From Candidatus Nitronereus thalassa (GTDB taxonomy: Bacteria; Nitrospirota; Nitrospiria; Nitrospirales; UBA8639): a stretch of 64,000 nt of DNA. The notes beneath the pieces were generated by a model. That model searched no databases. It saw only the letters and a list, made by a program, of their open reading frames with translations, and was not told the origin of the DNA. Position numbers and translations under genes: made by a program. Shown here piece after piece: positions 50,917 through 64,000 of the stretch. Position 1 is the first letter of the stretch. Each line of letters opens with the position of its first letter. The stretch covers positions 2,418,001 through 2,482,000 of the forward strand of contig NZ_JAQOUE010000001.1 of the NCBI RefSeq assembly GCF_032191465.1, read 5' to 3'.

Positions 50917-50992
50917 GCGCCTGTGGCTCAATGGATAGAGCATCGGTCTTCGGAACCGAGGGTTGGGGGTTCGAGTCCCTCCAGGCGCCCCA
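50917..50992 (+). tRNA. tRNA-Arg (anticodon UCG)
   Basis: A complete cloverleaf can be folded: acceptor GCGCCTG/CAGGCGC, D arm GCTC...GAGC, anticodon stem TCGGT/ACCGA around loop CTTCGGA (anticodon TCG, reading CGA), and T arm with GGTTCGAGTCC. CCA is encoded at 50990-50992. Its 3' part (50945-50989) is repeated in reverse orientation at 54133-54177, so the gene is a likely integration target. Confidence 0.93.
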
Positions 50993-51018
50993 CGTCCTAA
51001 GCTGGTCGAACACCCATT

Positions 51019-51187
51019 AACGATAACCAATACTTACTCGATTCAATGGGCTCAGACAACGACAAATCTCAAAGAGCTGGCGCGCTTGAGATGGACGGAA
51101 AACTGGCCGGTCAAGCGGCTGGCAGAGCATTTCGGCAAAAGCCCGGAGACCATTCAGTGGCATTTGGGGCGGATGAAAAGGGGCTAG
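51019..51187 (+). pseudogene. Helix-turn-helix fragment downstream of the tRNA
   Basis: An open frame following the tRNA encodes TNLKELARLRWTENWPVKRLAEHFGKSPETIQWHLGRMKRG, a plausible helix-turn-helix of the recombinase/sigma type. No ATG is in frame; the frame runs back into the tRNA, where it yields only a tRNA artefact (MGVRVPPGAP). It may be the 3' end of a broken regulator or recombinase, or use an unusual start. The position next to the integration target suggests element debris. Confidence 0.35.
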
Positions 51188-51260
51188 GTGGTCTTTTTTG
51201 ATCTCTGTCAGCCGCCGTTGAAGCCGGGGAAATCTTTGCCGCATGCATCCCTGGGCAAAT

Positions 51261-52004
51261 CTACCCATAGGCCAAAAGGAAAATCGCCTTCTCGGAGGAT
51301 GAAGAAACCAAGGGATCAGAAAGACAGGATTCAAAGTCGCTGTCGGATGTTATTAGAACCGGAAACTTGCTTTTAGAAAACAGGTTCACGATCATCGCAT
51401 CTGCTCCCCGGAGGCCCTGATCTCCCATCAATTGAACTAGATCATTCCATCGCAAAGGGCTGTGAAACAAATCTGAAACTCCATCTTCCATGACTTCCAC
51501 AAAATTGAGACCGAGATCTTCTTCAAGCAATGTCCATTCATTGACCAGCATGGAGCCGACAAACTTTTTGCAGAAGTCCCTCCAGTCATCGACACCATAG
51601 GCTTGTTCCACGTTCTGCCGAAGTTTTTTAAGGCGGCGTTCATCGATTTTGAAAGAGTGATTCTGTCTTCGCGCAGCCGTGTCCTTATCCCGGATGTCTT
51701 TCAATAAACCATAGATCGGCTCACGTTGGGATTCACGTTTGAGTACCCCGAAAAGCTGAATGCATCCCTGAGTCACCTGTTTGCGAAAAATCAGATCAAT
51801 GAATTCCATTCGGCTGATCACGTTGACGTAGAGCGAAGCCCCTTGCTCATGAAGAAAATCGAGAACGTCGTTCGCTTGGTTGAAAAGCCGGTCATCGTCG
51901 TAGGCCAGCGCATACAAGAATCCGGTATCGGCGAGATATCTCGGCGGACTGCCGCAACCTTGAAAATGCCGGGCAAGGTCGTCCAAACTCCTCAGAACCT
52001 TCAT
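51261..52004 (-). CDS. PIN-like domain nuclease, probable toxin
   Basis: The 247-residue protein begins with a short leader and then YLADTGFLYALAYDDDRLFNQANDVLDFL (first catalytic Asp near residue 26), a Glu in NVISRMEFIDLIF (about 67), a long helical insert with many charges (about 85-185), then GADAMIVNLFSKSKFPVLITSDSDFESCL, supplying the last acidic residues. This is the PIN order, but the insert makes it almost twice the size of a VapC. The start codon shares a base with the stop of a 56-residue gene upstream (TAATG), a toxin-antitoxin-like arrangement. Confidence 0.7.
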   Translation of the reverse strand: MKVLRSLDDLARHFQGCGSPPRYLADTGFLYALAYDDDRLFNQANDVLDFLHEQGASLYVNVISRMEFIDLIFRKQVTQGCIQLFGVLKRESQREPIYGLLKDIRDKDTAARRQNHSFKIDERRLKKLRQNVEQAYGVDDWRDFCKKFVGSMLVNEWTLLEEDLGLNFVEVMEDGVSDLFHSPLRWNDLVQLMGDQGLRGADAMIVNLFSKSKFPVLITSDSDFESCLSDPLVSSSSEKAIFLLAYG

Positions 52005-52174
52005 TACGCTTCCAAATCCTTCGGCGCAGGAGGAGGAGACGCCACTTTCTTCTTGTCGTCCCGATTTATCTTATCGACCAGGCCCTGCGGCGGCCATTGC
52101 CGGCCTAGCTTTTTTAACTTTTCAGCCCATTTTCTGCCGGCACCTTTTTTAGGAATTCTCGGTTTTTCGCTCAT
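52004..52174 (-). CDS. 56-residue basic protein, putative partner of the PIN nuclease
   Basis: Read directly from the sequence: MSEKPRIPKKGAGRKWAEKL, then KKLGRQWPPQGLVDKINRDD, ending SPPPAPKDLEA. The ATG ending at 52174 has GGAGG six bases upstream, a strong start. The stop and the nuclease start overlap (TAATG), so the two are translationally coupled. It is Lys/Arg-rich at first and Pro-rich at the end; no known family. By position it could be an antitoxin or cofactor, which is inferred only. Confidence 0.75.
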   Translation of the reverse strand: MSEKPRIPKKGAGRKWAEKLKKLGRQWPPQGLVDKINRDDKKKVASPPPAPKDLEA

Positions 52175-52246
52175 TTTTTCCTCCGATATCTGAATCAGTT
52201 ATACCATAGGCTTTTTGGTCGTCTAAACACCTAATTTTACTGAGAC

Positions 52247-52780
52247 TTAATGAGCCGCCCGGCAAGTGATTGATCGGCAAAAACGAGTAGAGTATAAGTA
52301 GGACAAAAGCCCTTTTGAGTCCAGTCCGGTAACGTAATCCAGCTTATCAGACGGCAATTCCCGCCCGTTTAGCCAGGTTTTCAGCTTTCCCGGCCACCGG
52401 GGCTCTATTAAAAAATTATTATTGAGCGCATTCTTCTCGGCCAGCCCGTTAATGTGCAAATTGAACATATTGGATTTATAGCCGAAGACTTGTTTAAAAG
52501 GGGATCGAACCACATGATTCCCTGCACGCTCTCGCCATTGATTCTTATCGTCAACACTATATGAGCTTAAATTCCAGTCCTTTACCTCGATTATCGCGAC
52601 CCCTGCCCCTCTCCGCATCAAGATGATGTCTGGCATGTCACCATTCAGAAACGGCTGGAAGAAGATCTCGTAATCGTCTGAGAGCCGCTGGGCCAAGGAC
52701 GTGGCAAGTGCTATCTCGCCAGGCGTTGGAGGCACCTTGAGCCGTTCAATGTTTTCGAGACATGGAAAAATTTTAGCCAT
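52247..52780 (-). pseudogene. NERD-domain nuclease-related protein, C-terminally truncated
   Basis: The ATG ending at 52780 (AGGGAAACC upstream) encodes 177 residues. It has the NERD nuclease motif (MPDIILMRRGAGVAIIEVKDWNL; D...E-x-K as in PD-(D/E)xK enzymes) and the start of the following linker (DKLDYVTGLDSKG). NERD proteins are normally 500 residues or more and often continue into a UvrD-type helicase; here the sequence stops abruptly after LYSTRFCRSITCRAAH. It lies just after the attC of the cupin cassette, so it appears to be a second, damaged gene cassette. A genuine short protein remains possible. Confidence 0.65.
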
Positions 52781-52821
52781 CAAGGTTTCCCTTCACCAAC
52801 GCGGCACAAAGTATCAAAGGC

Positions 52822-52914
52822 AGCTAACGACCCAAGCTCAGCGACCCGGCGCACGGGACGCGTGGATTGCAAACCACGACGTCATGCCGGGTTCGCTGCA
52901 GCGCATGGTTATGC
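52822..52914 (-). repeat. attC: Integron attC site of the cupin cassette
   Basis: Read on the minus strand it begins GCATAAC (R'' box, 52914-52908) and ends GTTAGCT (R' box, 52828-52822). Between them AGCGAACCCGGC and GCCGGGTCGCT pair to form the L boxes with unpaired extra bases, the usual sign of an attC hairpin. The first 12 bases at the R'' side (GTGCCGCATAAC on the minus strand) are the exact complement of the start of the cassette at 53470-53459, as required when a circular cassette re-forms its attC. The boxes deviate slightly from consensus. Confidence 0.7.
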
Positions 52915-53469
52915 GGCACTTGGTTGTGTACTTCATGGGCCTCTACTTTTCTGCTTACGACCAAAGGCGGCTGGTCGCGGTTACATTTTCCTTTCGTGAT
53001 TATGAGGCGAAACTTTCTATTCAAGGCTTTCGGATGGATCTTCCTTTACCTTTTTCAGCCACGATGAATTCCAGCCATCGAACACCTTCAGTCTTACTAG
53101 GGTTCCAATGGGAATGAGTGGTGCCGGCCGGAACGAGTAGGCTGTCACCGGGTTTTAGGGTAATGGGTTCCTTGCCCTCCTGCTGGAAAACTGGTGTCCC
53201 AGAAACTACATAGAAGGTGACCGCCGCCGGATGAAAATGGCGACGGTTGACACCACCTGGCTCGTACTTCACATCTATGACTGTGAAGTCCAGATTCGCT
53301 GTGCCGTCCACTCCGCGTACTATGAGATCCGTAGGTGTTACCCCAGATTTTTGTGGGATGTCTTTCGGATCTTGTGCGTGAGCTACAGACGCAGCTAGAG
53401 CCGCCCCGAATAAGATGAGTTTAGTTAGTCTGTTCATTTTCAATCTCCATTTCGATGAGTGCCGCATAA
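52828..53469 (-). mobile_element. Integron gene cassette carrying a cupin gene
   Basis: The 642-base unit begins with TTATGC at 53469 (minus strand) and ends at the G of the attC R' box (52828). It carries one gene in the direction leading away from the integrase fragment, followed by its attC, which is the classical cassette layout. The integration point would be the G|TTATGC junction at 53470/53469. Confidence 0.65.
53021..53437 (-). CDS. Secreted cupin-domain protein (cassette gene)
   Basis: The ATG ending at 53437 is preceded by GGAGATTGAAA and gives 138 residues; a longer frame to 53467 would begin inside the cassette boundary. A signal peptide (MNRLTKLILFGAALAASVAHAQ) precedes a single cupin domain: EPGGVNRRHFHPAAVTFYVVSGTPVFQQEGKEP and LKPGDSLLVPAGTTHSHWN, with the metal-binding His residues (H-x-H, H at GTTHSHW). 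Its substrate is unknown; small periplasmic cupins often bind or isomerise small molecules. It is the only gene of its cassette. Confidence 0.85.
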   Translation of the reverse strand: MNRLTKLILFGAALAASVAHAQDPKDIPQKSGVTPTDLIVRGVDGTANLDFTVIDVKYEPGGVNRRHFHPAAVTFYVVSGTPVFQQEGKEPITLKPGDSLLVPAGTTHSHWNPSKTEGVRWLEFIVAEKGKGRSIRKP

Positions 53470-53470
53470 C

Positions 53471-53803
53471 AGTTTATTAAACGACACCTGTCGCAAAAGC
53501 TGGTGCCGCTTTATTTTTAGTTTGATAAGGTCAAAAACTAATGCTTTTTTACCTATTAAACAAGCACTTACTTATTTTTATTAACAAAGAATCTATCAGG
53601 AGAAGCGGCACTTGTCGCTTTTCCTGAAATTTACCTTACCTTCTTTGGTTTTATTTTTCCCTTATTTTTCAATACCTTGTATTAACTACGGTTCAAATAA
53701 TCCCGGAGTTTTTGCGACTGTCGCCGTTTATATTGCTGTCACATTATTTATTGATTTTTTATGTTATTTTAATTACTGTACATATAACCAGCATGGAGTG
53801 CTT
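53471..53803. other. Putative attI / promoter region of the integron
   Basis: This 333-base gene-free stretch separates the cassette junction from the integrase fragment. Beside the junction is an imperfect repeat (AAACGACACCTGTCGC; GCTGGTGCCGCTTT). A related, inverted version AAGCGGCACTTGTCGCTTTT lies at 53602-53621. In integrons this is where attI, the cassette promoter and the intI promoter lie; I cannot identify those elements individually. The sequence is strongly A+T-rich. Confidence 0.4.
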
Positions 53804-54132
53804 ATGAATATTTACCGTCACGATGACACCCCGATTCCCCTAAATTCTAAACCCGTCAAGTTTCTGGACCGTTACCGCACTTGGTTAAGGCTCAACGGTT
53901 ATGCCTGGCAAACCGAAAAGCACTACATTATGTGGGTTGCCAAATTTATTCGTTTTCATGGTATGAAGCATCCCGAAACCTTGGGGTCAGAGGATATCGC
54001 TGCTTTTCTCTCTGAAAAGACGCTCCAGGAGCATTGGTCACCAAGCACCCAAAAAACCGCCCTGAATGCCCTCGCCAATGTTTATACCAAGTTTTTAGGC
54101 ATGGATATTGGCACCCTTCATTTTCGATATGC
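53804..54132 (+). pseudogene. intI: Integron integrase, N-terminal fragment (intI-like)
   Basis: The ATG at 53804 (GGAG six bases upstream) starts MNIYRHDDTPIPLNS followed by the core-binding domain of integron integrases: KFLDRYRTWLRLNGYAWQTE, KHYIMWVAKFIRFHGMKHPE, LGSEDIAAFL and STQKTALNALANVYTKFLGM. The frame stops matching at about residue 109, at the start of the tRNA-Arg fragment; the catalytic domain (R-H-R-Y) and the integron-specific insert are missing. The residues read beyond this point (GGTRTPNPRFRRP) are just an antisense tRNA. It is divergent from the cassettes, as in known integrons, and cannot be active. Confidence 0.8.
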
Positions 54133-54177
54133 GGCGCCTGGAGGGACTCGAACCCCCAACCCTCGGTTCCGAAGACC
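54133..54177 (-). repeat. 45-bp copy of the tRNA-Arg 3' end (att-like), inverted
   Basis: These 45 bases are identical to the reverse complement of 50945-50989, i.e. from the anticodon stem through the discriminator base of tRNA-Arg(UCG). A fragment from anticodon to 3' end is exactly what tyrosine integrases leave at the far end of an element in a tRNA gene. It is, however, in the opposite orientation to the intact tRNA. It also marks the truncation of the integron integrase and the left edge of the large element. Confidence 0.9.
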
Positions 54178-54297
54178 CAACCGATCACGATAAGACTAAG
54201 AATGATTGAGTAGGATAGAGTATTCCAATCTCCGTATCAACACAAGCGTTTCGCTCCTTTTATGTGTGAACAAGTGTGATCCTGGTGGATTCAGAAT

Positions 54298-54340
54298 TGG
54301 GAGTATAACTGGGAGTGAACCGGGAGTAAAACTGGGAGTG
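54298..54340 (+). repeat. Four iteron-like 11-12-bp repeats
   Basis: GGGAGT occurs at 54299, 54311, 54322 and 54334, i.e. every 11 to 12 bases (roughly one helical turn), within YGGGAGTRWAA-type units. The right half, GGGAGTAAAACTGGGAGTG (54322-54340), is repeated perfectly at 63896-63914. The stretch from 54194 to 54488 has no gene I can support; besides the repeats nothing else is apparent. Confidence 0.6.
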
Positions 54341-54488
54341 GATTGGGTCCCTGCGCCGAACTTGAAAGAAGGCGACCCCATGGGGGGACTTTTAGGGAAA
54401 CCTTGTATACCTTGCCATTGAATAACATCCCCTCGATGAGTGGATTTCGACAGAAACCGTAGTGGGGAATAAAGATATTTTAGCAAGC

Positions 54489-55289
54489 CTATTTCCGGAG
54501 ATTTAAGGTGATGTGCTTACTTATTTTTTCCCCATTCCGCAGCAGCAAAACGTCAACTCCTTTGCCAGCATACTTTTCTACCACTTTGGGCAACGTAGAA
54601 CGGTCAATTATTTCAATTTCCCCAATCTGCCTGATAATATCCCCCCTTAAAACATCTGCATTAAATGCAGGTGAACCTTTGACCACCACCACCACCACAA
54701 CTCCCTTATTACTCTCAATGAGTTGGCGTTCTTCCTCTTTAAGATCTCTAATTTTAACACCAAATACTGGCTCCTTACCCTTCACCCAAAAGGTTGCCGT
54801 GTAATCATAACGACGCACGTTATATGGAATGTAGGTTGTTTGCGTCCCCGTAGTTTGGGTAGTTGCTGTACCTGAGTAGCTGCCGGATCCACCAGAGCCA
54901 AAAACATTTCCGGATAAATTTGTCGTTTGGGTTTGCGTATTGGGCAAGCTAAGTGGCAAGGATCCAGAGAGTGTCTCTGTATATTCTGAATGCAATACAA
55001 CAACCTCTGCGCCAACGGCTTTCCCTTGCTCCAATGCCTGGGATTCATCAATCTTGGCGGCATTGAAACGTGAATGTCCGATTAAATCATAGCCTTCTTC
55101 TCGCATGGCTAGAGTTTTACTTTCAAAGTCACCTCCACGAATTAGGGTTGGCTCAACCACAGAAGATTTGGGGGGTGCCGAAAGTGCTTTTAGATCAGCA
55201 CCACCCGTATTATCATAATAAAATTTCGCAAAGGGATTGGGGGCGCACGCAGAGAGCAAGAGGATGGAAGCAATAAGAAAGAACCTCAT
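54489..55289 (-). CDS. PDZ-domain lipoprotein
   Basis: The 266-residue protein has a lipoprotein signal (MRFFLIASILLLSACAPNPF; lipobox LSAC at 12-15). A middle domain (about 40-125, EGYDLIGHSRFNAAKIDESQALEQGKAVGAEVVVLHSEYTE) is followed by a Gly/Ser/Thr-rich linker (SGNVFGSGGSGSYSGTATTQTTGTQ). The C-terminal PDZ domain (about 195-264) reads VVVVVVKGSPAFNADVLRGDIIRQIGEIEI...KGVDVLLLRNGEKI. It would sit at the envelope and bind protein ends. It is an unusual cargo for a mobile element and its partner is unknown. Confidence 0.8.
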   Translation of the reverse strand: MRFFLIASILLLSACAPNPFAKFYYDNTGGADLKALSAPPKSSVVEPTLIRGGDFESKTLAMREEGYDLIGHSRFNAAKIDESQALEQGKAVGAEVVVLHSEYTETLSGSLPLSLPNTQTQTTNLSGNVFGSGGSGSYSGTATTQTTGTQTTYIPYNVRRYDYTATFWVKGKEPVFGVKIRDLKEEERQLIESNKGVVVVVVVKGSPAFNADVLRGDIIRQIGEIEIIDRSTLPKVVEKYAGKGVDVLLLRNGEKISKHITLNLRK

Positions 55290-55311
55290 AGGCTGCTCCT
55301 TTAGTCATCCA

Positions 55312-56016
55312 TTATTGAATAGAACAGTTCAAAATAGTTTTCCCAGAAAATCCAAGCAGATAAAGCTTTTCAAAATCCAAGTTAAACCCTGAGACAATCT
55401 CATTGAGCATTTTATCTAGCACTGGAAAAGTTTCATTATCATCAAAGCGAAAACCTATATAATCATCGAATGTGATAACAAGCATGTATGATTTTCCATA
55501 TTGCCTATTGGATTTTCCCTCAACACATTTTCTTATTAACTCACAAGTTTTTTTCCTGGTATCATTTACGCTAACCGCTTCATCCTTTACCTGAATTTTA
55601 TGCCCCCTTTTTTCTGATCCTTCATAGCGCAAGTCACCTACTAAATTTACATGCCCATGTTCAAGAAAGTATTTCATTCGCAGGTAATCATCTTTCCCAT
55701 CAACTGCTCTCGTAAATTCAACCTTTAACTCTTTTGGGGGCGTGTAGGACTTGTCAAGGATCGTAGCATCATAATTATCATTGTCCAAATTTGGTATACA
55801 TGCGACATCTTTCCTATTTCCATATAAATTCATAGCTAGTTGACACAAAGGGAGGATTTCTTCAAAGAAGGGTTTGGCTAGCCCCTTCTTTAGAAGAGCT
55901 TGTTCTTTTAATTCTGGAGTTTTTGAAAACTCACTTATCTTTTCGTCAATCCAAGATTGGAGCTCTCTCGGACTTCTCGAAGCAATTAAGTCTTCTTGAT
56001 TTAGAATGCTAGGCAT
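55312..56016 (-). CDS. Unknown protein (possible nuclease-like)
   Basis: This 234-residue protein has no signal or membrane segment. A region about 80-125 (YDATILDKSYTPPKELKVEFTRAVDG, then DDYLRMKYFLEHGHVNLVGD) loosely recalls a restriction-type D...E-x-x core, but the usual E-x-K is not clear, so I do not assign it. It is 22 bases upstream of the PDZ lipoprotein gene and probably co-transcribed with it. Base composition is A+T-rich. Confidence 0.6.
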   Translation of the reverse strand: MPSILNQEDLIASRSPRELQSWIDEKISEFSKTPELKEQALLKKGLAKPFFEEILPLCQLAMNLYGNRKDVACIPNLDNDNYDATILDKSYTPPKELKVEFTRAVDGKDDYLRMKYFLEHGHVNLVGDLRYEGSEKRGHKIQVKDEAVSVNDTRKKTCELIRKCVEGKSNRQYGKSYMLVITFDDYIGFRFDDNETFPVLDKMLNEIVSGFNLDFEKLYLLGFSGKTILNCSIQ

Positions 56017-56308
56017 TTACTTTCTAAAAATACCTTAGTGTCGGAATTTGGAAGCAGAAGACTGTAACTCATCAGGAAAAAACGGAACAACAAAGAGAAA
56101 TCGTAGTGACCGATCATGCTTGAGTCTGAACAAAGTTACCTATTGGGGCTTTACAGGCAATTTTGGATCGCTTGTTTTCCTCAACTCTTACATTCCTTTC
56201 CCTCTGTTCTATTTGCCCCGACTGGACTGGGAAAGACCCATGAAAGGTGGACTGCTTAAGAGCATAATGGATTTTCACAATAGCGATTGCCACACAAAAC
56301 GGTATCGG

Positions 56309-57553
56309 TCAAGAAGGCGCATTCAAATCAATGTTAATATCCGCGTTTAAATTCAGCCCTGCGGAATTCAAAAAATCCCTGATAAAAATGTTATGTAATG
56401 ACCTAAATTCTTCTTTTGGCCCAATTGGATAACGTGGGAAGATAGTCGTACCTTGGGGTAAATTCTGACTCACGGAATCAAAATAGCCAAAATTAATAAG
56501 ACCTCCCAATTGGCAGTTCTTGGCGTCAATCTCAATGTCAAATGCAAATTCTAGGGACTCCGAACCCAATAAAGCCCGATACTTTTCAACCTGAAACAGG
56601 ACATTCGCAAATAGGGACCAAGCCCAGGAAGCCGCTAAATGGAAAGGTTGAAAATACTCATCCTTTTTCCTTAGATGGGTGAGTTCGATCATCCCATCTG
56701 AATATGTTTCAAAAGAAACTAAACAATGATCGGTCCCTCCCACACCACGTGTGCCCCTTAAGATGGGTCGGTAACTGTGAAGGTGAAATGGAATACACAA
56801 AGGATATGTGCCTAAATCACCTACGCTAGCATTGAAGGATTTTAATTCTGGACGAATTTCTTCTCGATTATGGACCCGATCAACGTTTACTGGATGCAAC
56901 GGTAACGCCGTTCCCCTGATCCCGAACGCTTGTTCAGAGGCACTTGAAAAAATTTTGAAATTCTCAGAGAAGAGAAGTTGGCGATCCTTGAGCCTATTGT
57001 CCACAGTCGTCAAAGCACGATTTAGCTGTAAGGTAAGATCCTGAATTTCCCGCATCGTTAGTTTCTCGGATCGGTCGGCCCTTCTCACGTAACATTCTTT
57101 AGTGCTTTTATGGCGGTGAGGGCCTAACCAAGACCTCTCTACCCTAATAACTACCACGCCGGAACCGTCTTTTTCAGTTGCAACACCAGCACATTCTATT
57201 ATGGGAATCTGAGGTTCGATACAATCTCTGCATTGTTTTCTGATACGATCCGCAAGATCATGACAATCCCGTAGGGCAAAAATTTCTTTTGCTCGTGCGG
57301 GATGATCACGGGATTCAGCAACCCCCAAAAAAACCGTTCCTCCATAGGAATTCCCAAAGGCAATGACTTCCTCTAGGATCACATCTCTAGCATATTCGCT
57401 AATATTCCCTTTACCCGATTGCCATGGATCTGAGGTTCCTTTTTTCGTTGGAAGTTGTCCCTTAAATTCAATCCCCTCTCCTTCCTGAATCTCATCCTTA
57501 ATTATTTGGTCAACGTCTTCTTTGGTGAATTGGTTAGCTCGTTTATCTACCAT
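56309..57553 (-). CDS. AlbA/Schlafen-type putative DNA-binding (divergent AAA) protein
   Basis: The 414-residue product has an N-terminal AlbA_2-like domain: GEGIEFKGQLPTK (about 26-38), LEEVIAFGNSYGGTVFLGVAESRD, and GSGVVVIRVERSWLGPHRHKSTKECYVRRADRSEKLT. This fold occurs in helicase-regulators, transcription factors and Schlafen-related defence proteins. The C-terminal 220 residues are unfamiliar. Such proteins are frequent in phage-defence and mobile islands. A 292-base gap separates it from the next gene to the left; nothing convincing is seen there. Confidence 0.7.
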   Translation of the reverse strand: MVDKRANQFTKEDVDQIIKDEIQEGEGIEFKGQLPTKKGTSDPWQSGKGNISEYARDVILEEVIAFGNSYGGTVFLGVAESRDHPARAKEIFALRDCHDLADRIRKQCRDCIEPQIPIIECAGVATEKDGSGVVVIRVERSWLGPHRHKSTKECYVRRADRSEKLTMREIQDLTLQLNRALTTVDNRLKDRQLLFSENFKIFSSASEQAFGIRGTALPLHPVNVDRVHNREEIRPELKSFNASVGDLGTYPLCIPFHLHSYRPILRGTRGVGGTDHCLVSFETYSDGMIELTHLRKKDEYFQPFHLAASWAWSLFANVLFQVEKYRALLGSESLEFAFDIEIDAKNCQLGGLINFGYFDSVSQNLPQGTTIFPRYPIGPKEEFRSLHNIFIRDFLNSAGLNLNADINIDLNAPS

Positions 57554-57690
57554 TTCTTCAAAATACCCTATAAAGTTTAAAACTCAAACAGATATAGCTT
57601 TTATGGCTTGCCTGTATCTCGTGCTTCATTGGTTCTTGTACTACATTAATTTTACGCTGGTGTTATTCTAAAATTGTATAAAAACCTCGA

Positions 57691-58422
57691 TTAATCTTGC
57701 ATAATGGCCCTGTCGGGATTTTCAAACTCTTCCCGTAATTTCCGCCTGAATAGTTCCAGTTTTTCCTTTTGCTTCACAGGGGATAGTTTCTGAAATCGCG
57801 GGTCTCGTTTAAACTTCTCTTCCTCTAGTTGAAGGCTGCCTGTTAAAGGAGATGAAGGCTCTCCACTATTAGATCCTCCTTGCTCTATCCCCCCTCTATC
57901 GACTAAACCATCCAAGAATTGGGAAAAGGCTTTTAAATTGTCAGAAAGTGACATGCCTAACTCTTGTACTCGCTTGGCTTGGAGCACACCTTGTCTCAAC
58001 TTAACATCGAATATCCTAAGCAATGACATGGCATGAGAATTGGCTGGTCCAGATTCCTTAATTGATTCATCATCAGTAAGAGTCCGTAACCACTTTCCAT
58101 AGGAGTCATACAGGATCATATGATTGTTCATTATAGTGGGAACCTTCTCATACAAGACGTTATATTTCTTGCATTCAGCCAGATCCCCTATTACTTCAGC
58201 TTCTTCAAATTTCGTCATCTCTGCTTCGCACCTATCTAACTGATGAATATGTTCGTTTAGAATGTCACTAACCTTTCTGAATTCCTGCGCATAAAAGCGA
58301 TCTAAGCTTTGAGGGCCGGTTTCAGCAGAGACATCTAGAGTCAATAAAATTAGGAACGTCCCTAATATAAAAAAATTCACGAGTCTTGGGGTGCCAGAAA
58401 TACACATAACCCAACTATTCAC
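57691..58422 (-). CDS. Unknown protein with N-terminal membrane segment/signal
   Basis: The 243-residue product has a hydrophobic N-terminus (about residues 14-33, LVNFFILGTFLILLTLDVSA) that ends in a plausible signal-peptidase site (VSA-ET), followed by a long helical domain with coiled-coil character and a charged C-terminus (KFKRDPRFQKLSPVKQKEKLELFRRKLREEFENPDR). I do not recognise a family. Its start overlaps the previous gene's stop (ATGA), so it forms a coupled pair with the membrane protein. Confidence 0.65.
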   Translation of the reverse strand: MNSWVMCISGTPRLVNFFILGTFLILLTLDVSAETGPQSLDRFYAQEFRKVSDILNEHIHQLDRCEAEMTKFEEAEVIGDLAECKKYNVLYEKVPTIMNNHMILYDSYGKWLRTLTDDESIKESGPANSHAMSLLRIFDVKLRQGVLQAKRVQELGMSLSDNLKAFSQFLDGLVDRGGIEQGGSNSGEPSSPLTGSLQLEEEKFKRDPRFQKLSPVKQKEKLELFRRKLREEFENPDRAIMQD

Positions 58423-58907
58423 TTCTTGGCTTGCAATATGACATAGGCCAAACTACACATCACGGTGCCTGCAATTATTTCCATAAAGACTAAAGAAAAA
58501 TTTATCTTTAGGTTGGCATCTGCTCCCAGTAGTGGGAGGAACCTATAACCCCAAGAAATAGTATGTGTAGTTCCCCTAATGTCTACTTCTTTATAGCAAG
58601 GCACGTATAATACCAAAATCAATACCATTCCTAACCACACAATCAACACTTTGGATTTTAATGGCAGATCTTTCCAAGGAATCATATTGCCCAATATGTT
58701 ATCCCTTATTCTCTGCAAGTGCTTCCAGGGAATCCACTCTGCAACCCATGGAACTATAACCCCTGCAAACAGGATGACCATAATGACGAGCCAGATGCCA
58801 AATCCATCAGAACTGTAGAAATAATTAAGAGCGAATAAAGATCCGATGCCAATTAGGAAAGCCGTCGCATAAGTTTTCCAATCATCCTTCATCAAACTTG
58901 CCATCAT
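58419..58907 (-). CDS. Four-helix integral membrane protein, unknown
   Basis: The 162-residue protein has four hydrophobic segments (about 12-28, 34-54, 86-104 and 137-158), the last ending VMCSLAYVILQAKK. It is short and lacks catalytic motifs. A four-base overlap couples it to the downstream secreted helical protein. Together the two look like a membrane-bound module of the element. Confidence 0.65.
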   Translation of the reverse strand: MMASLMKDDWKTYATAFLIGIGSLFALNYFYSSDGFGIWLVIMVILFAGVIVPWVAEWIPWKHLQRIRDNILGNMIPWKDLPLKSKVLIVWLGMVLILVLYVPCYKEVDIRGTTHTISWGYRFLPLLGADANLKINFSLVFMEIIAGTVMCSLAYVILQAKK

Positions 58908-59459
58908 TCTTAGTTGAGGGATTTAGAAGAAGTATTCTTTTCAACAATGAATATCCGCAATTTTGACCTTTTTAATAGAGAAAACGCTAGTGAAAGATTT
59001 AGGATGAAGAATAGTGATTAAAAAAGAAGGAATAATACTGAAAGATAAACCAAGCTATCATGTTATTCTCGTTCTGTTTTGAGGACAAAGTAAGCATGGA
59101 AACGTCATGAATAATATACGCTCATGTCCGTACACCCTTGATGGGATAGATCACAAGATAGGCTTAACCACGGGAATTTGACTACTTGATGCCTTCACAC
59201 AGGGCACCAAAGACAAACAAAAGAAGAGAAAATATGGTGTCGCTAATGTCCGTTAAGTTTGTTAATTCTGAAAATGAATGTAAATTATTTTCGGATCATA
59301 TTTAATAAGATTAAATGAGATTGGGATAATCAATTCAATGGTCCATGATGGCATTATATTTGTTCGGTCACTGCTAATATATATAAAAAAGGCTTCAAAG
59401 CCTTCCCCGTTTCGGTCTTTAAAAAGAATAAGATATTTTTGCATTAGCCATTAAGACAT

Positions 59460-59586
59460 CATGACGCATTTACGTGAATGACACGATTTGACGCATATCT
59501 CTGGTAATTTCGCTATAACCTATAGGCATAATATAAATTACTGAAAATACGTGTCAGAATCCGTCATCTGTCCTAAATACGTCATG
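59460..59586. repeat. Nested inverted repeats at the end of the primase gene (possible element origin)
   Basis: CATGACGCATTTA (59460-59472) faces TAAATACGTCATG (59574-59586), one mismatch in 13. Inside, TGACACG (59479-59485) faces CGTGTCA (59550-59556). TGACGCAT occurs twice (59462, 59489). The outer arm overlaps the last codons of the primase gene. Such clusters adjacent to D5-type primases can be replication origins; position and symmetry only. The rest of 58908-59581 (about 670 bases) shows nothing else; a 60-codon minus-strand frame there looks spurious. Confidence 0.55.
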
Positions 59587-61720
59587 ACATGCGTGCACTT
59601 TCGCGCAACCCAATACCCCACCATCCCCGCCGATTGGCTTTGCGATCATCAATCAAGCCTCGTTCTTTCAGACAAAGACCCAGGGCCTTTTGTGATATAG
59701 GGTTTTCTCCGTTCTCTACGCACCATTTTTTATACGATTCGTAGAGGCCCTTAGAGGGCACAAAAGATTGGGGCTCTTGAATACAACAATCCGCCAGAAA
59801 CCCACCCAGTGTATCCATTTCATCACGATAGGATTGAGTGGCGTTTTTCACGTCGTCTGGCATTCCGAGACCATGACTTTGCCACTTTAAACAGCCTTGT
59901 ATAGCCCAATTCAGAATGCCTTGGTCTTCCTCACTCAATTTCTGCTTTAATTCCTTATCTTGTTCTTCTTCAGGAATTGTCTCTACAAAGGGAATGAGTC
60001 GAATCCTCCTCCATATCGCATGATCGGTGCCTTTAATATTGGGTTTATGGTTTGTTGCTAAGAATAATTTTAATGTTGGGGTAAACTCAAAAAATTCCTG
60101 GTGCAAGAACCTGGCCGTGATTTTGTCTCCGCCTGTCACTTGCTTTACTAAGGCTTCATCAAGTTTTTTCCCTTCCTGGCATTCCGTGGCCGTGACAAGA
60201 CGTACCCCAACCAAGCGCGCTAGATCATTCGGAATCGCATTCTGTTTTTTTGCCAAAAACGTGGAGAAATCCGCTTGCTGAGCATAGTCACCCAGGCACG
60301 TCCGAATGGTTTCCAAGAAAGTGGATTTTCCGTTGGCCCCCGTACCATAAAGAATGAATAGAATTTGTTCGTTTGCCTGGCCCGTGAGACCATAACCGAT
60401 CGCTCGTTGTAGGAAGTCCACCAAGTCTTGGCGTTCCTGCATGATCCGACACAGAAAGATTTCCCAAAGAGGGGCTGTGGCGTTAGCATCAAAATCGACG
60501 GGAGCCAGCTTGGTGATGAGTTTTCGGCGATCATGAGGAAGGAGTTCACCTGTGCGAAGATCAACCGTGCCATTTCGACAATTCAAAAGCATAGGTTCAT
60601 TATCAAGCTCTGTCGGAGCGACTGGGATTTTTGCTTCAGACTCTGCCAAATGAATCATCCCCCGAAGTCGAGGGGTGGCTTCAGATTGCAAGGAATGGCG
60701 AATAACTTTTTTTCGGTCTTCCTTATCCTCGATTTTCTCAGCCTCATTGACAATTCCGCGAACGGTGGTCTTGGCTAACCGCACAATTTCCTCAGTATCA
60801 TCCACTATCCATTGCTGCCCATTCCATACGAGCCATTTCTTCCACGGATGGCAATAGCGAATGAAGTCCCCATGAAGGGCAACTAAACGTTCAGCATTGC
60901 CATAGTCGGTTAGAGGAAACACTTTGCGAAGCATGATGGTAGGTTCTTCTTGTCGCCTCGTCCACCGTTGCCACCAGCCAGCCAGCTTATGTAATCTTGG
61001 ATCGTCCAGACTAATTCGTTCCAGTTTGTACCAAACATGGCCCCACAGTGAGCCTTCCCTGACCAACCAATCATCCAGGCCAACTTTTATCCCAGACGTA
61101 TCAGGCAGTTTGACGAATTGAACATGTGCGCCGCGTTGGATGAGTGCCATCCCCAGGGCAAAAACCCCACCCAAAATGTCAAAGAGTTTGTCTTTGGTCC
61201 AAGCATCAGAATCGGGAATAATCTCAACCTGCCGCGCTCTCCATATGAACTGATCTAATTCAGGACAATCCAATCTTTCACCAGAATCTATCTTGACTCG
61301 CCAGTTCCAGACCCCACCGATTCCAATGCAGGGCTTGCCATGCTGACAAAAACTGGCCGCCTTTTTTTCTCCCTCCGTTATATAGACAAAGATACTTGGA
61401 TCACTTGCCGTTAAACGCCAATCCACCAAGGGGGGTAAGTAAAGATGGGGATCGGAGCCAGGCGGTTGATAATATTTGATTGTGTGTCCCTTGGCATCTT
61501 TGAGTGGTGGGAATAACTTCAATCGGGAGAAACCATTCCTGTTTCCATCCGGATCCCAATAGGAAATCTCATAGGCACTGGAAACAGCATTATACTTAGA
61601 ACCCAGTTTTTGTAAGCGATGTGGGTTTACAGATTGAATGGCCAACTGACTAAGGGTTTGATCACTCAAGCCACTTTTTTGCAGATCGGTTAGGTGTTCG
61701 GGGTGAAGGTCAGACATCAT
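59582..61720 (-). CDS. Phage/plasmid-type primase-helicase (DUF3854 + D5 SF3 helicase)
   Basis: The 712-residue protein would start replication of the element. The N-terminal half (about 100-230) carries a TOPRIM-like DUF3854 domain (VYITEGEKKAASFCQHGKPCIGIGGVWNW, IIPDSDAWTKD). A D5_N domain leads to a superfamily 3 helicase with Walker A FILYGTGANGKSTFLETI, LVTATECQEGKKLDEALVKQVTGGDKITARFLHQ, and LKLFLATNHKPNI. The C-terminus is a winged-helix-like tail. It lies immediately after the excisionase gene on the same strand. ATG ending at 61720 or 61717 are both possible. Confidence 0.9.
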   Translation of the reverse strand: MMSDLHPEHLTDLQKSGLSDQTLSQLAIQSVNPHRLQKLGSKYNAVSSAYEISYWDPDGNRNGFSRLKLFPPLKDAKGHTIKYYQPPGSDPHLYLPPLVDWRLTASDPSIFVYITEGEKKAASFCQHGKPCIGIGGVWNWRVKIDSGERLDCPELDQFIWRARQVEIIPDSDAWTKDKLFDILGGVFALGMALIQRGAHVQFVKLPDTSGIKVGLDDWLVREGSLWGHVWYKLERISLDDPRLHKLAGWWQRWTRRQEEPTIMLRKVFPLTDYGNAERLVALHGDFIRYCHPWKKWLVWNGQQWIVDDTEEIVRLAKTTVRGIVNEAEKIEDKEDRKKVIRHSLQSEATPRLRGMIHLAESEAKIPVAPTELDNEPMLLNCRNGTVDLRTGELLPHDRRKLITKLAPVDFDANATAPLWEIFLCRIMQERQDLVDFLQRAIGYGLTGQANEQILFILYGTGANGKSTFLETIRTCLGDYAQQADFSTFLAKKQNAIPNDLARLVGVRLVTATECQEGKKLDEALVKQVTGGDKITARFLHQEFFEFTPTLKLFLATNHKPNIKGTDHAIWRRIRLIPFVETIPEEEQDKELKQKLSEEDQGILNWAIQGCLKWQSHGLGMPDDVKNATQSYRDEMDTLGGFLADCCIQEPQSFVPSKGLYESYKKWCVENGENPISQKALGLCLKERGLIDDRKANRRGWWGIGLRESARMS

Positions 61721-61725
61721 TGCGT

Positions 61726-61938
61726 TTACATTTCCCCGGATCTTCCCAAAGGAGTTTTAACCTCGTCTCGCCACCCCGTCTTAATCAATGCTTCAACAGC
61801 TTCGATCGGAATGCGAATCAATCGCCCAATTTTTACGCTGGGCACTCTTCTTTCTAAAATGTCCCTCCGCCACGTTGAAGCCTTTCGTCCAGTCAATTCC
61901 TCTGCCTCAAAAACGCTGATCAGTTTTTCTGACTTCAT
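61726..61938 (-). CDS. Excisionase/AlpA-like helix-turn-helix protein
   Basis: The 70-residue protein, with AGGAGG seven bases before the ATG, is a MerR-like HTH_17 module: LISVFEAEELTGRKASTWRRDILERRVPSVKIGRLIRIPIEAVEALI. Such proteins bind att-site DNA, promoting excision, or regulate the element. Its position between integrase and primase is standard in satellites and integrative elements. Confidence 0.85.
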   Translation of the reverse strand: MKSEKLISVFEAEELTGRKASTWRRDILERRVPSVKIGRLIRIPIEAVEALIKTGWRDEVKTPLGRSGEM

Positions 61939-61971
61939 GGTTCCTCCTTCTACACTATTGATCGATTTTGG

Positions 61972-62000
61972 TTGACAGGTATCTCCAATAGGAATATTTT
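61972..62000 (+). promoter_or_regulatory. Sigma70-type promoter for the zinc-finger/integrase genes
   Basis: TTGACA (61972-61977), a 17-base spacer and TATTTT (61995-62000) face right, in the 110-base gap between the divergent excisionase and zinc-finger genes. The excisionase could bind here to control both directions. Confidence 0.55.
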
Positions 62001-62048
62001 ATGTACACTATTATCATTTAGTAAATAGTTACATTATAGGGTACAAAA

Positions 62049-62852
62049 TTGCTGAGGAAACATATAAATCATAGAGGGATTTGGTGGCACGGACCTGTGA
62101 GAATAGATCGGGACGTTATATTTCCATGGGACCTTAAGCCTTACAATCCATTTGATTATTACCATCCGTATAAAGCGACCAAGACCCGAAGAACGCGTTC
62201 CCTTTATCATCTGTTTGCAGATTTGGACGGCAATGACCCAATGAAATTGAAGGATTTTTGCCAAAAATTCGGGGTCTTGGGAAATCCCCACAAAATATGG
62301 ATTCCCTTGAACAAGACCGCTTTTGGAAATCAGACATTCTATGACTTTGATCCGGAAATAGAGGATCCTGAGCAAAAAGACACAAGAGGAAGTGTTTTTC
62401 CTGATCAAAAACTTTGTTCAACAACAACGCTTTGGGAATTTCAGAGGGAGCAAAATGCAATGAAGGAAACTCTTCAATTCCTGGTCGAATGCGAAAATGC
62501 TAAGAACGCACGGACTCGACTGGCGGCAAAAGAAAAAATCTCAATGCGCATTGCTGGGGAACTTACAAAAGTAGTGATGCGTCCTGTTTGGAATAAAAGG
62601 GAGATGCGCTGGGTAACCCAGTGGGATAGTTTAACTCTATGCGGCCTAATGTATTTGATGCTTGCATTTGATCTTCAAAGCCCAGGTCGCAACCTTCTTT
62701 GTGGGAAATGCGGAAGGTTTTTTCTTGCCGTACATGCCCGTTCTGAATATTGCTCACCCCGATGTCAAAATGCTGCAAAAGTAGCACGTTTTAGAAGAAA
62801 GGAGAGAATGCGTCATAGAAAAAGATTAGGCGATAAAGGAAAGGAGTCTTAG
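62049..62852 (+). CDS. CGNR-type zinc-finger protein, unknown role
   Basis: The 267-residue product ends with a Cys4-type finger, LCGKCGRFFLAVHARSEYCSPRCQNAAKVARFRRKERM, of the CGNR/plant-AP2-like kind often carried in mobile elements. The N-terminus contains GIWWHGPVRIDRDVIFPWDLKPYNPFDYYHP and then a helical middle. Translation appears to start at a TTG (62049): an upstream in-frame TAG excludes a longer start and no close ATG keeps the conserved-looking N-terminus. It runs into the integrase gene with two bases between, so they are probably one operon. Confidence 0.65.
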   Translation: MLRKHINHRGIWWHGPVRIDRDVIFPWDLKPYNPFDYYHPYKATKTRRTRSLYHLFADLDGNDPMKLKDFCQKFGVLGNPHKIWIPLNKTAFGNQTFYDFDPEIEDPEQKDTRGSVFPDQKLCSTTTLWEFQREQNAMKETLQFLVECENAKNARTRLAAKEKISMRIAGELTKVVMRPVWNKREMRWVTQWDSLTLCGLMYLMLAFDLQSPGRNLLCGKCGRFFLAVHARSEYCSPRCQNAAKVARFRRKERMRHRKRLGDKGKES

Positions 62853-62854
62853 TT

Positions 62855-64000
62855 ATGGCAAGGCTTGGAGGCAAAGATAGAGGGATTGTTTTTAAAGATG
62901 GGAAGTGGTGGGTTAGGTTGTTCATCAATGGGCGAGAAAAGTGGTTTCGTGCAGAAAATAAAACACAGGCCAAGGCTTTGTATGGACGACTTAGGGCGGA
63001 TATTCGTGAGGGCAAATATTTTCCTGAGAAATTTGATAAACAGAAAGACATTTCCCTTCGAGCCTGGATTGATCGCTATTTAGAGGGATCGACCAATCGA
63101 AACCTTGTCAATGAAAAACGACATGGTCGATTCTGGAAGCTATTGCTGGGAAAAAGAACGCTCGGCCAAATTACCATCGAAGATTGCCGGCGTACTCAAG
63201 CCAAAATTCGGGCAAAGGGAAAATGGAAGCCAGCGACGATAAACCGTTATATGGCCTTTCTGCGACGGGTACTTATGGTGGCTTTGAAGGAAGGAAAGAT
63301 TAGTCAGAATCCCGTGAGCTCCGTAAAGTTTTTCCCCGAAGCCGAAAAGGTGCGTTTTCTTACCGATGAGGAATTACTCAACCTTCGTAAACATTTGGCA
63401 GAAGAAGAATGGAAACTGGTGGCTTTTGCTGTGGAAACGGGGATCAGGAGAGAAGAACAATTCCACCTCCGCTGGAACCACATTTCCTTTGAAGCCCAAA
63501 CCCTCACCATTCCTCTTCCCAAAGGAGGGCGTACCCGGCATGTTCCTTTATCCACCCAAGCCTTAGAAATCCTTCGATCTCTGGATTCCATTCTTAATTC
63601 ACCGTTTGTGTTTGCCGGCATCAAAGATCCGCTTCAACCTATGGATAGTCGCGCTTTCATGCGCCGAGCGTTTGAACCGGCCCTGCGAAAGGCCGCCATC
63701 CAAGGGGCTTCCTGGCATACCTTACGGCACACCACAGCATCACGCCTTGCCATGGCTGGCGTCCCGATACGAACCATTCAGGAAATCCTTGGTCACCGTG
63801 ACATTGGGACAACCTTGAAGTACACCCATCTTGCCCCAAGCCACCTCAAGGAAGCCATTCAATTGGGCAGTTTAGCCAATTTGGAATCTCGAACTGGGAG
63901 TAAAACTGGGAGTGAGGGATTGCAAAGTAGGAAGGATGCTTCACAAGTGGTTGATTTGATGGCGCGCCAGTCTATCCTTTCTCAATCGATATCAAATTAA
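62855..64000 (+). CDS. Tyrosine recombinase (phage-type integrase)
   Basis: The 381-residue protein, with AAGGAG before the ATG, ends with TAA at the last bases of the window. It has an N-terminal arm-binding region, a core-binding domain (about 65-160, SLRAWIDRYLEGSTNR...WKPATINRYMAFLRRVLMVALKEG) and a complete catalytic domain: Arg in ETGIRREEQFHLRW, Lys in LPKGGRTRHVPL, HTLRH, and the nucleophile Tyr in LKYTHLAPSHL. It would integrate and excise the element. The C-terminal tail contains a GSKTGSEG repeat whose DNA is shared with 54.3 kb. Confidence 0.93.
   Translation: MARLGGKDRGIVFKDGKWWVRLFINGREKWFRAENKTQAKALYGRLRADIREGKYFPEKFDKQKDISLRAWIDRYLEGSTNRNLVNEKRHGRFWKLLLGKRTLGQITIEDCRRTQAKIRAKGKWKPATINRYMAFLRRVLMVALKEGKISQNPVSSVKFFPEAEKVRFLTDEELLNLRKHLAEEEWKLVAFAVETGIRREEQFHLRWNHISFEAQTLTIPLPKGGRTRHVPLSTQALEILRSLDSILNSPFVFAGIKDPLQPMDSRAFMRRAFEPALRKAAIQGASWHTLRHTTASRLAMAGVPIRTIQEILGHRDIGTTLKYTHLAPSHLKEAIQLGSLANLESRTGSKTGSEGLQSRKDASQVVDLMARQSILSQSISN
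63896..63914 (+). repeat. 19-bp direct repeat of 54322-54340 inside the integrase 3' end
   Basis: GGGAGTAAAACTGGGAGTG is identical to 54322-54340 and in the same orientation, 9.6 kb apart. Here it encodes part of the integrase tail. It might be the core of the recombination site for the element, or a tail shared with a lost second integrase copy. Confidence 0.6.

What the first reader, a model, noticed from the sequence alone, without database searches (positions are those of the whole stretch)
54133..64000. Self-contained integrative element of about 10 kb with D5 primase and unusual envelope cargo
Integrase, excisionase-like HTH, D5-type primase-helicase and zinc-finger gene form the hallmark core of phage-satellite-like or integrative plasmid elements. 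No capsid, terminase or conjugation genes are seen. The cargo (PDZ lipoprotein, unknown soluble protein, AlbA/Schlafen protein, coupled secreted/membrane pair) is not a system I recognise and may be a defence or envelope module.
Basis: partly seen in the sequence, partly recalled or inferred. Interest (0 to 1): 0.7.

Follow-up and report, generated by a model that had tools for sequence, protein, structure and literature searches.

The report
Satellite-like tRNA-targeted island in Nitrospirales
A 9.8 kb mobile DNA island with its own integrase and replication primase, apparently stranded by a DNA rearrangement, belongs to a family of phage-satellite-like islands that insert into tRNA genes of nitrite-oxidising Nitrospira-type bacteria, and its unfamiliar cargo sits where sister islands carry DNA-restriction and similar defence genes.

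Summary
54130-63968 is a 9.84 kb integrative element with a tyrosine integrase, a zinc-finger gene contiguous with it, an excisionase-type HTH, a P4/D5-type primase-helicase and five cargo genes. It has no capsid, terminase or conjugation genes.

Its far end is a 48-nt copy of the 3' half of the genome's single tRNA-Arg(TCG). A congener has an empty site downstream of that tRNA. Sister elements in other Nitrospirales sit at tRNA-Arg or tRNA-Gln genes. They share the integrase, the zinc-finger gene and mostly the xis, but carry different replication proteins and cargo. Arm-type repeats mark both ends, one set inside the integrase coding sequence. One sister locus has a terminase small subunit; another element carries a type II restriction-modification system in the cargo slot.

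Best reading: a satellite-like integrative island that works like PICMI/PICI elements but belongs to neither by the features tested. Here its integrase end stops nine bases into the tRNA 3' end and faces away from the tRNA, so it is probably stranded by an inversion.

The cargo does not recur as a unit. Defence is plausible by position and folds (Schlafen/AlbA_2; a PD-(D/E)XK-like layout) but untested.

The parts
50917..50992 (+). Intact tRNA-Arg(TCG), the presumed attB target; only copy of this isoacceptor in the genome; 3' end GGCGCCCCA differs from GCGC(G/A)CCA of relatives
54130..54177 (-). Far att end: copy of tRNA-Arg 3' half, anticodon loop to 3' end, inverted relative to 50917-50992
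   Evidence: 48 nt, 98%; 45 nt exact, tRNA nt 29-73
54294..54341 (+). Far-end arm-type repeats (tandem ACTGGGAGT-like units), about 117 bp from the att end
   Evidence: same layout in L139, L144, L149, L173
54489..55289 (-). Cargo: predicted lipoprotein with C-terminal PDZ domain (266 aa)
   Evidence: PDZ_2 6.3e-10; signal/lipobox read from sequence; no plasmid or phage match
55312..56016 (-). Cargo: orphan 234 aa protein, candidate PD-(D/E)XK-like nuclease (invariant E53, D83, E100-x-T102, K168)
   Evidence: Foldseek inconclusive
56309..57553 (-). Cargo: Schlafen/AlbA_2 domain protein (414 aa); E24, E29, E80 correspond to SLFN13 E205, E210, D248 by motif
   Evidence: 52 bits; weak pairwise alignment, E 0.083
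57691..58422 (-). Cargo: predicted secreted, mostly helical protein (243 aa), start overlaps the end of the upstream gene
   Evidence: 3 of 346 genomes, weak
58419..58907 (-). Cargo: predicted multi-pass membrane protein (162 aa), coupled to the secreted protein
   Evidence: no convincing homologue in 197 genomes
59582..61720 (-). P4/D5-type primase-helicase (712 aa): DUF3854 + D5_N + DUF5906, Walker A GTGANGKST
61726..61938 (-). Excisionase/AlpA-type HTH (70 aa), next to the primase
   Evidence: about 50% identical in L139, L146, L143, L148
62049..62852 (+). Zinc-finger gene contiguous with int (267 aa), four Cys invariant in seven elements
62855..64000 (+). Tyrosine integrase (381 aa as read); homology with relatives ends near residue 371
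63891..63915 (+). Integrase-side arm-type repeats inside the int coding sequence (GAACTGGGAGTAAAACTGGGAGTGA)
63960..63968 (-). TGGCGCGCC: nine-base stub of a tRNA-Arg 3' end at the position where relatives continue into the tRNA; rearrangement breakpoint follows

Best explanation
A small, satellite-like integrative island of Nitrospirales. Inferred life cycle: integrase with Xis, probably helped by the int-adjacent zinc-finger protein, recombines a core in the anticodon loop of a tRNA gene. The tRNA 3' half is supplied by the element on the integrase side, and the displaced 3' half is left at the far end. Integrase arm-binding sites lie about 55 bp inside the integrase-side end (within the int coding sequence) and about 117-134 bp inside the far end. 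After excision, the P4/D5 primase-helicase would replicate the circle, and transfer would need a helper phage or other carrier, because no transfer genes are present. The five cargo genes occupy the slot between the primase and the far end, where sister elements carry other accessory and defence genes; here they are proposed to act as host-protection cargo. Shown: gene content, att copy, end repeats, empty site, sister family, broken integrase-side att. Inferred: that the end repeats bind integrase, helper dependence, cargo function, and that a roughly 13 kb inversion with one breakpoint in the tRNA acceptor stem separated int from the tRNA and left this copy unable to excise normally.
For: Families. 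Far tRNA 3'-half copy. Empty site in the same genus: tRNA-Arg followed after 151 bp by the desaturase that here lies 13.9 kb away. Sister integrases of 53-71% abut tRNA-Arg(acg, tct, tcg, ccg) or tRNA-Gln 3' ends at all 11 evaluable loci. Far tRNA copies at tRNA nt 30-76 in a 6.0 kb sister and nt 31-74 in a 16.1 kb sister. End repeats similar within an element and differing between elements (ACTGGGAGT versus ACCGTGACC types), 0 of 1000 shuffles. Zinc-finger Cys invariant. Terminase small subunit at sister locus L143, R-M system in L146. Stranding: integrase-side sequence is TGGCGCGCC then unrelated DNA; the tRNA 3' end is uniquely GGCGCCCCA among the relatives read.
Against: No packaging, capsid-remodelling or helper-interference gene was recognised in this element, so satellite status is by analogy. 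The integrase family was not found in IMG/VR viral contigs. L143's far end was not mapped, so its terminase gene is only probably inside the element. An assembly error could also produce the inverted arrangement; reads were not available. The inversion breakpoints are inferred from one genome.
Confidence: 0.72

Rival explanations
1. An integrative plasmid-like or IME-type island that replicates with the D5 primase and moves by conjugal mobilisation or natural transfer, with no link to phages.
For: No packaging gene in this element; replication proteins are swapped freely among sisters; the integrase family is absent from viral contigs.
Against: No relaxase or mobilisation gene was recognised; an oriT was not searched for. 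Sister locus L143 has a terminase small subunit, and a primase relative at tRNA-Ser (L132) sits with terminase large subunit and head protease.
Confidence: 0.22
2. A decayed remnant, no longer functional, of a once-larger prophage or island; the cargo is junk in passing.
For: The integrase-side att is broken, the element lies beside a truncated integron-type integrase, and cargo genes lack homologues.
Against: All element genes are intact open frames, and complete sister elements of 6.0-16.1 kb have the same compact layout without phage structural genes.
Confidence: 0.15
3. The inverted arrangement is an assembly error and the element really sits directly downstream of tRNA-Arg.
For: Re-inverting the segment restores a normal tRNA-int junction (CCTCCA + GGCGCGCCA, as in congener G027).
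Against: The junctions are not simple repeats: nine tRNA bases then new sequence at one, and a changed tRNA 3' end at the other, which a repeat-driven misjoin would not obviously create.
Confidence: 0.15

Closest known systems
PICMI (phage-inducible chromosomal minimalist islands of Vibrionaceae; PMC10803314)
   Same: Small island with int, a gene overlapping or contiguous with int, an AlpA/HTH_17-type regulator and a DUF3987 or DUF5906 primase; no capsid-remodelling genes; unrelated accessory genes
   Different: PICMI insert at fis and were found complete only in Vibrio; this family inserts at tRNA-Arg/Gln in Nitrospirales and carries more cargo; no helper phage known
PICI (phage-inducible chromosomal islands; PMC6092414)
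   Same: Integrase, xis, primase replication module, specific att site, no structural genes, accessory genes; terminase small subunit in some (compare sister locus L143)
   Different: No Stl/Rpr-type repressor recognised, no terS in this element, induction and packaging not shown
P4-like satellites (PMC8628076)
   Same: Primase-helicase of the P4 alpha type with an AlpA-like HTH and an accessory-gene hotspot
   Different: No Psu, Sid or Delta match
tRNA-integrated genomic islands in general
   Same: Integrase at the tRNA 3' end, displaced 3' half at the far end
   Different: End repeats embedded in the int coding sequence, swapped primases, and here a rearranged att

Membership tests
PICMI | int, AlpA-type regulator and DUF3987/DUF5906 primase together | tested here: met
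   PF00589 and PF19263 above cut-off; HTH_17 23.7 bits, below its cut-off of 27 but matching
PICMI | Gene overlapping or contiguous with int (iolg/icg, in most subfamilies) | tested here: met
   Zinc-finger gene ends at 62852, int starts at 62855; conserved in seven elements
PICMI | Integration at fis (called a hallmark in PMC10803314) | tested here: not met
   att is tRNA-Arg 3' half; sisters at tRNA-Arg/Gln
PICMI | Packaging by a helper phage | not testable with these tools
   Needs infection experiments
PICI | Integrase, xis and primase module, no structural genes, roughly 12-15 kb | tested here: met
   9.8 kb here, sisters 6.0-16.1 kb
PICI | Master regulator and PICI-specific genes (repressor, interference, terS) | tested here: inconclusive
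   None recognised in this element; terS-like gene at sister locus L143
P4-like satellite | Psu, Sid and Delta with primase and AlpA | tested here: not met
   No such match in Pfam or PHROGs scans of the element's proteins
ICE/IME | Relaxase or conjugation genes | tested here: not met
   None
Temperate prophage | Capsid, terminase, tail genes | tested here: not met
Known anti-phage defence system (cargo) | Match to a PADLOC system model | tested here: not met
   No cargo protein matched; only a weak HTH hit for the xis gene
PD-(D/E)XK nuclease (55312-56016) | alpha-beta-beta-beta-alpha-beta core with D at strand 2 and (D/E)-x-K on strand 3 | tested here: inconclusive
   Predicted order and E53, D83, E100 fit; the lysine is T102; no significant Foldseek match

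The most novel reading that the evidence does not exclude
A Nitrospirota-specific family of phage satellites in which one int-zinc finger-xis module with int-embedded arm sites is shared by elements using at least four different replication proteins, and in which the AlbA_2/Schlafen protein, the PD-(D/E)XK-like protein and the membrane/secreted pair of this copy form one or more undescribed anti-phage systems.
Probability: 0.25. Interest if true: 0.65.

Novelty: new variant of a known kind. Interest (0 to 1): 0.45.

Why it matters
Nitrospira-type bacteria oxidise nitrite in soils and wastewater plants, and I found no description of phage satellites in them in the held papers (three searches, so only an indication). 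The family gives mapped att sites, end repeats and a core gene set that can be searched for and tested. Paired end repeats that differ between elements make integrase-arm co-evolution directly testable, and the cargo slot is a place to look for new phage-defence genes in this phylum.

Tried and rejected
Recurrent cargo: searched each cargo protein in 197-396 genomes; no recurrence as a unit (for the PDZ lipoprotein only the C-terminal 173 residues were searched, so its N-terminal part is untested in genomes). Plasmids and phages: no match for the orphan, secreted and PDZ proteins where tried. A second match of the secreted protein, in G053 (L136), lies antisense to a pgsA-like gene and was discarded. 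Site-specific inversion between the two inverted tRNA copies was rejected as the cause of the arrangement, because it would flip 50992-54130 and leave the int-tRNA junction intact. Off-target integration into the integron integrase gene was rejected, because the tRNA half would then be at the integrase end. Origin iterons in 58900-59700: only weak two-copy repeats. Rfam: only the tRNA. Structure of the zinc-finger protein was of low confidence (pLDDT 65) and not used.

Full report
Observation. The window lies at G000:C1:2418001-2482000 of a 4.01 Mb, two-contig genome. No PADLOC model matched the cargo.

Ends. A 48-nt copy of the 3' half of tRNA-Arg(TCG) lies at 54130-54177, on the minus strand, while the intact tRNA lies at 50917-50992 on the plus strand. 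The genome has no other close copy. In the sister element L034/L139 the far copy covers tRNA nt 30-76, in G037 nt 31-74, and here nt 29-73: the same anticodon-loop-to-3'-end block. Sister integrases read into the antisense tRNA (for example ...SSQVLDMLARP|EGVEPPTARSVV). Repeats of the type GAACTGGGAGTAAAACTGGGAGTG lie about 55 bp from the tRNA at the integrase end and 117-134 bp from the far copy at the other end. They are similar at the two ends of an element and differ between elements: ACTGGGAGT in this element and L139; ACCGTGACC/ACCGGGACC in L144; ACCGTGACC at the far end of L149, whose integrase side keeps one such unit. Clusters occur only at the ends in the loci scanned. I read them as integrase arm-binding sites; this is inference from position and pairing.

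Empty site and rearrangement. In congener G027 the same tRNA is followed after 151 bp by a desaturase gene; here 13,891 bp (50993-64883) lie between them. In this genome the integrase end does not meet a tRNA: after GTTGATTTGA comes TGGCGCGCC (63960-63968), the expected start of the tRNA 3' end at the expected distance, and then unrelated DNA. The intact tRNA ends GGCGCCCCA, whereas every relative read at this locus has GCGC(G/A)CCA. Inverting the segment between tRNA position 50984 and 63968 would restore a normal tRNA-int junction. I therefore infer an inversion that leaves the element unable to excise normally; a misassembly is not excluded. The region 50993-54129 between tRNA and element holds an HTH fragment weakly like ISL3, a 247 aa orphan, a NERD-domain protein, a cupin and the N-terminal third of an integron-type integrase (53804-54130) cut off exactly at the tRNA copy.

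Family. Related integrases abut tRNA-Arg(acg, tct, tcg, ccg) or tRNA-Gln genes at all 11 loci with a readable integrase 3' end. The zinc-finger gene next to int keeps four cysteines in seven elements although overall identity is 17-28%. Replication proteins differ: D5-type here, PrimPol + DUF5906 in L143, DUF3987 in L146, TOPRIM + DnaB in L145. Cargo differs: a type II methyltransferase and restriction enzyme in L146, inside mapped boundaries of 16.1 kb in the same contig; an HD/dGTPase-like gene in L145; a membrane-anchored protein in L139. L143 has a terminase small subunit after its primase (phrog_51 1.2e-8), its far end unmapped.

Cargo. The 234 aa protein is found in 6 of 396 phylum genomes, in its two closest homologues as a lone gene. 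Its alignment has invariant E53, D83, E100, T102 and K168, and the predicted model (pLDDT 80) places them in the order of a PD-(D/E)XK core, but structure searches were not significant (FokI best at E 0.17). The AlbA_2 protein keeps the two glutamates shown to be essential in SLFN13 (E205, E210; PMC5862951) and has E80 at the place of D248; the E-x4-EFK motif match is by eye, since the pairwise alignment is weak and gapped there. The membrane and secreted proteins overlap by four bases and have no convincing homologues. Defence is the most likely cargo role by slot and folds, not by test.

Verdict. Best described as a satellite-like integrative island: it works like PICMI/PICI elements but fails PICMI's fis site and P4's Psu/Sid/Delta, and phage dependence was not testable. 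New variant of a known kind.

Noticed in passing
window 53804-54130 (+): N-terminal ~109 residues of an integron-type integrase (PRK15417 1e-19, TIGR02249) cut off exactly at the tRNA 3'-half copy; possibly the remnant of an older element at the same tRNA.
   Followed up: partly
window 50984-50992: tRNA-Arg(TCG) 3' end is GGCGCCCCA (discriminator C) where all relatives read have G or A before CCA.
   Followed up: partly
window 51261-52004 and 52247-52783 (-): A 247 aa protein without Pfam match and a NERD nuclease-related protein downstream of the tRNA, within the 13.9 kb insertion.
   Followed up: no
L132 6034-17244: tRNA-Ser-integrated element in another Nitrospirales genome with a DUF3854-type primase, terminase large subunit and head protease, between tRNA copies: prophage-remnant or capsid-forming satellite candidate.
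   Followed up: partly
L143 3950-4399: Terminase small subunit-like gene behind the PrimPol primase of the tRNA-Arg(ccg) sister element.
   Followed up: partly
L173 10681-10724 with L036 9576-9649: Sister element of 16.1 kb at tRNA-Gln carrying a type II R-M system between primase and far end.
   Followed up: yes
L002 5059-5592: DUF1569 protein with possible TAT signal between the element and the conserved desaturase.
   Followed up: no
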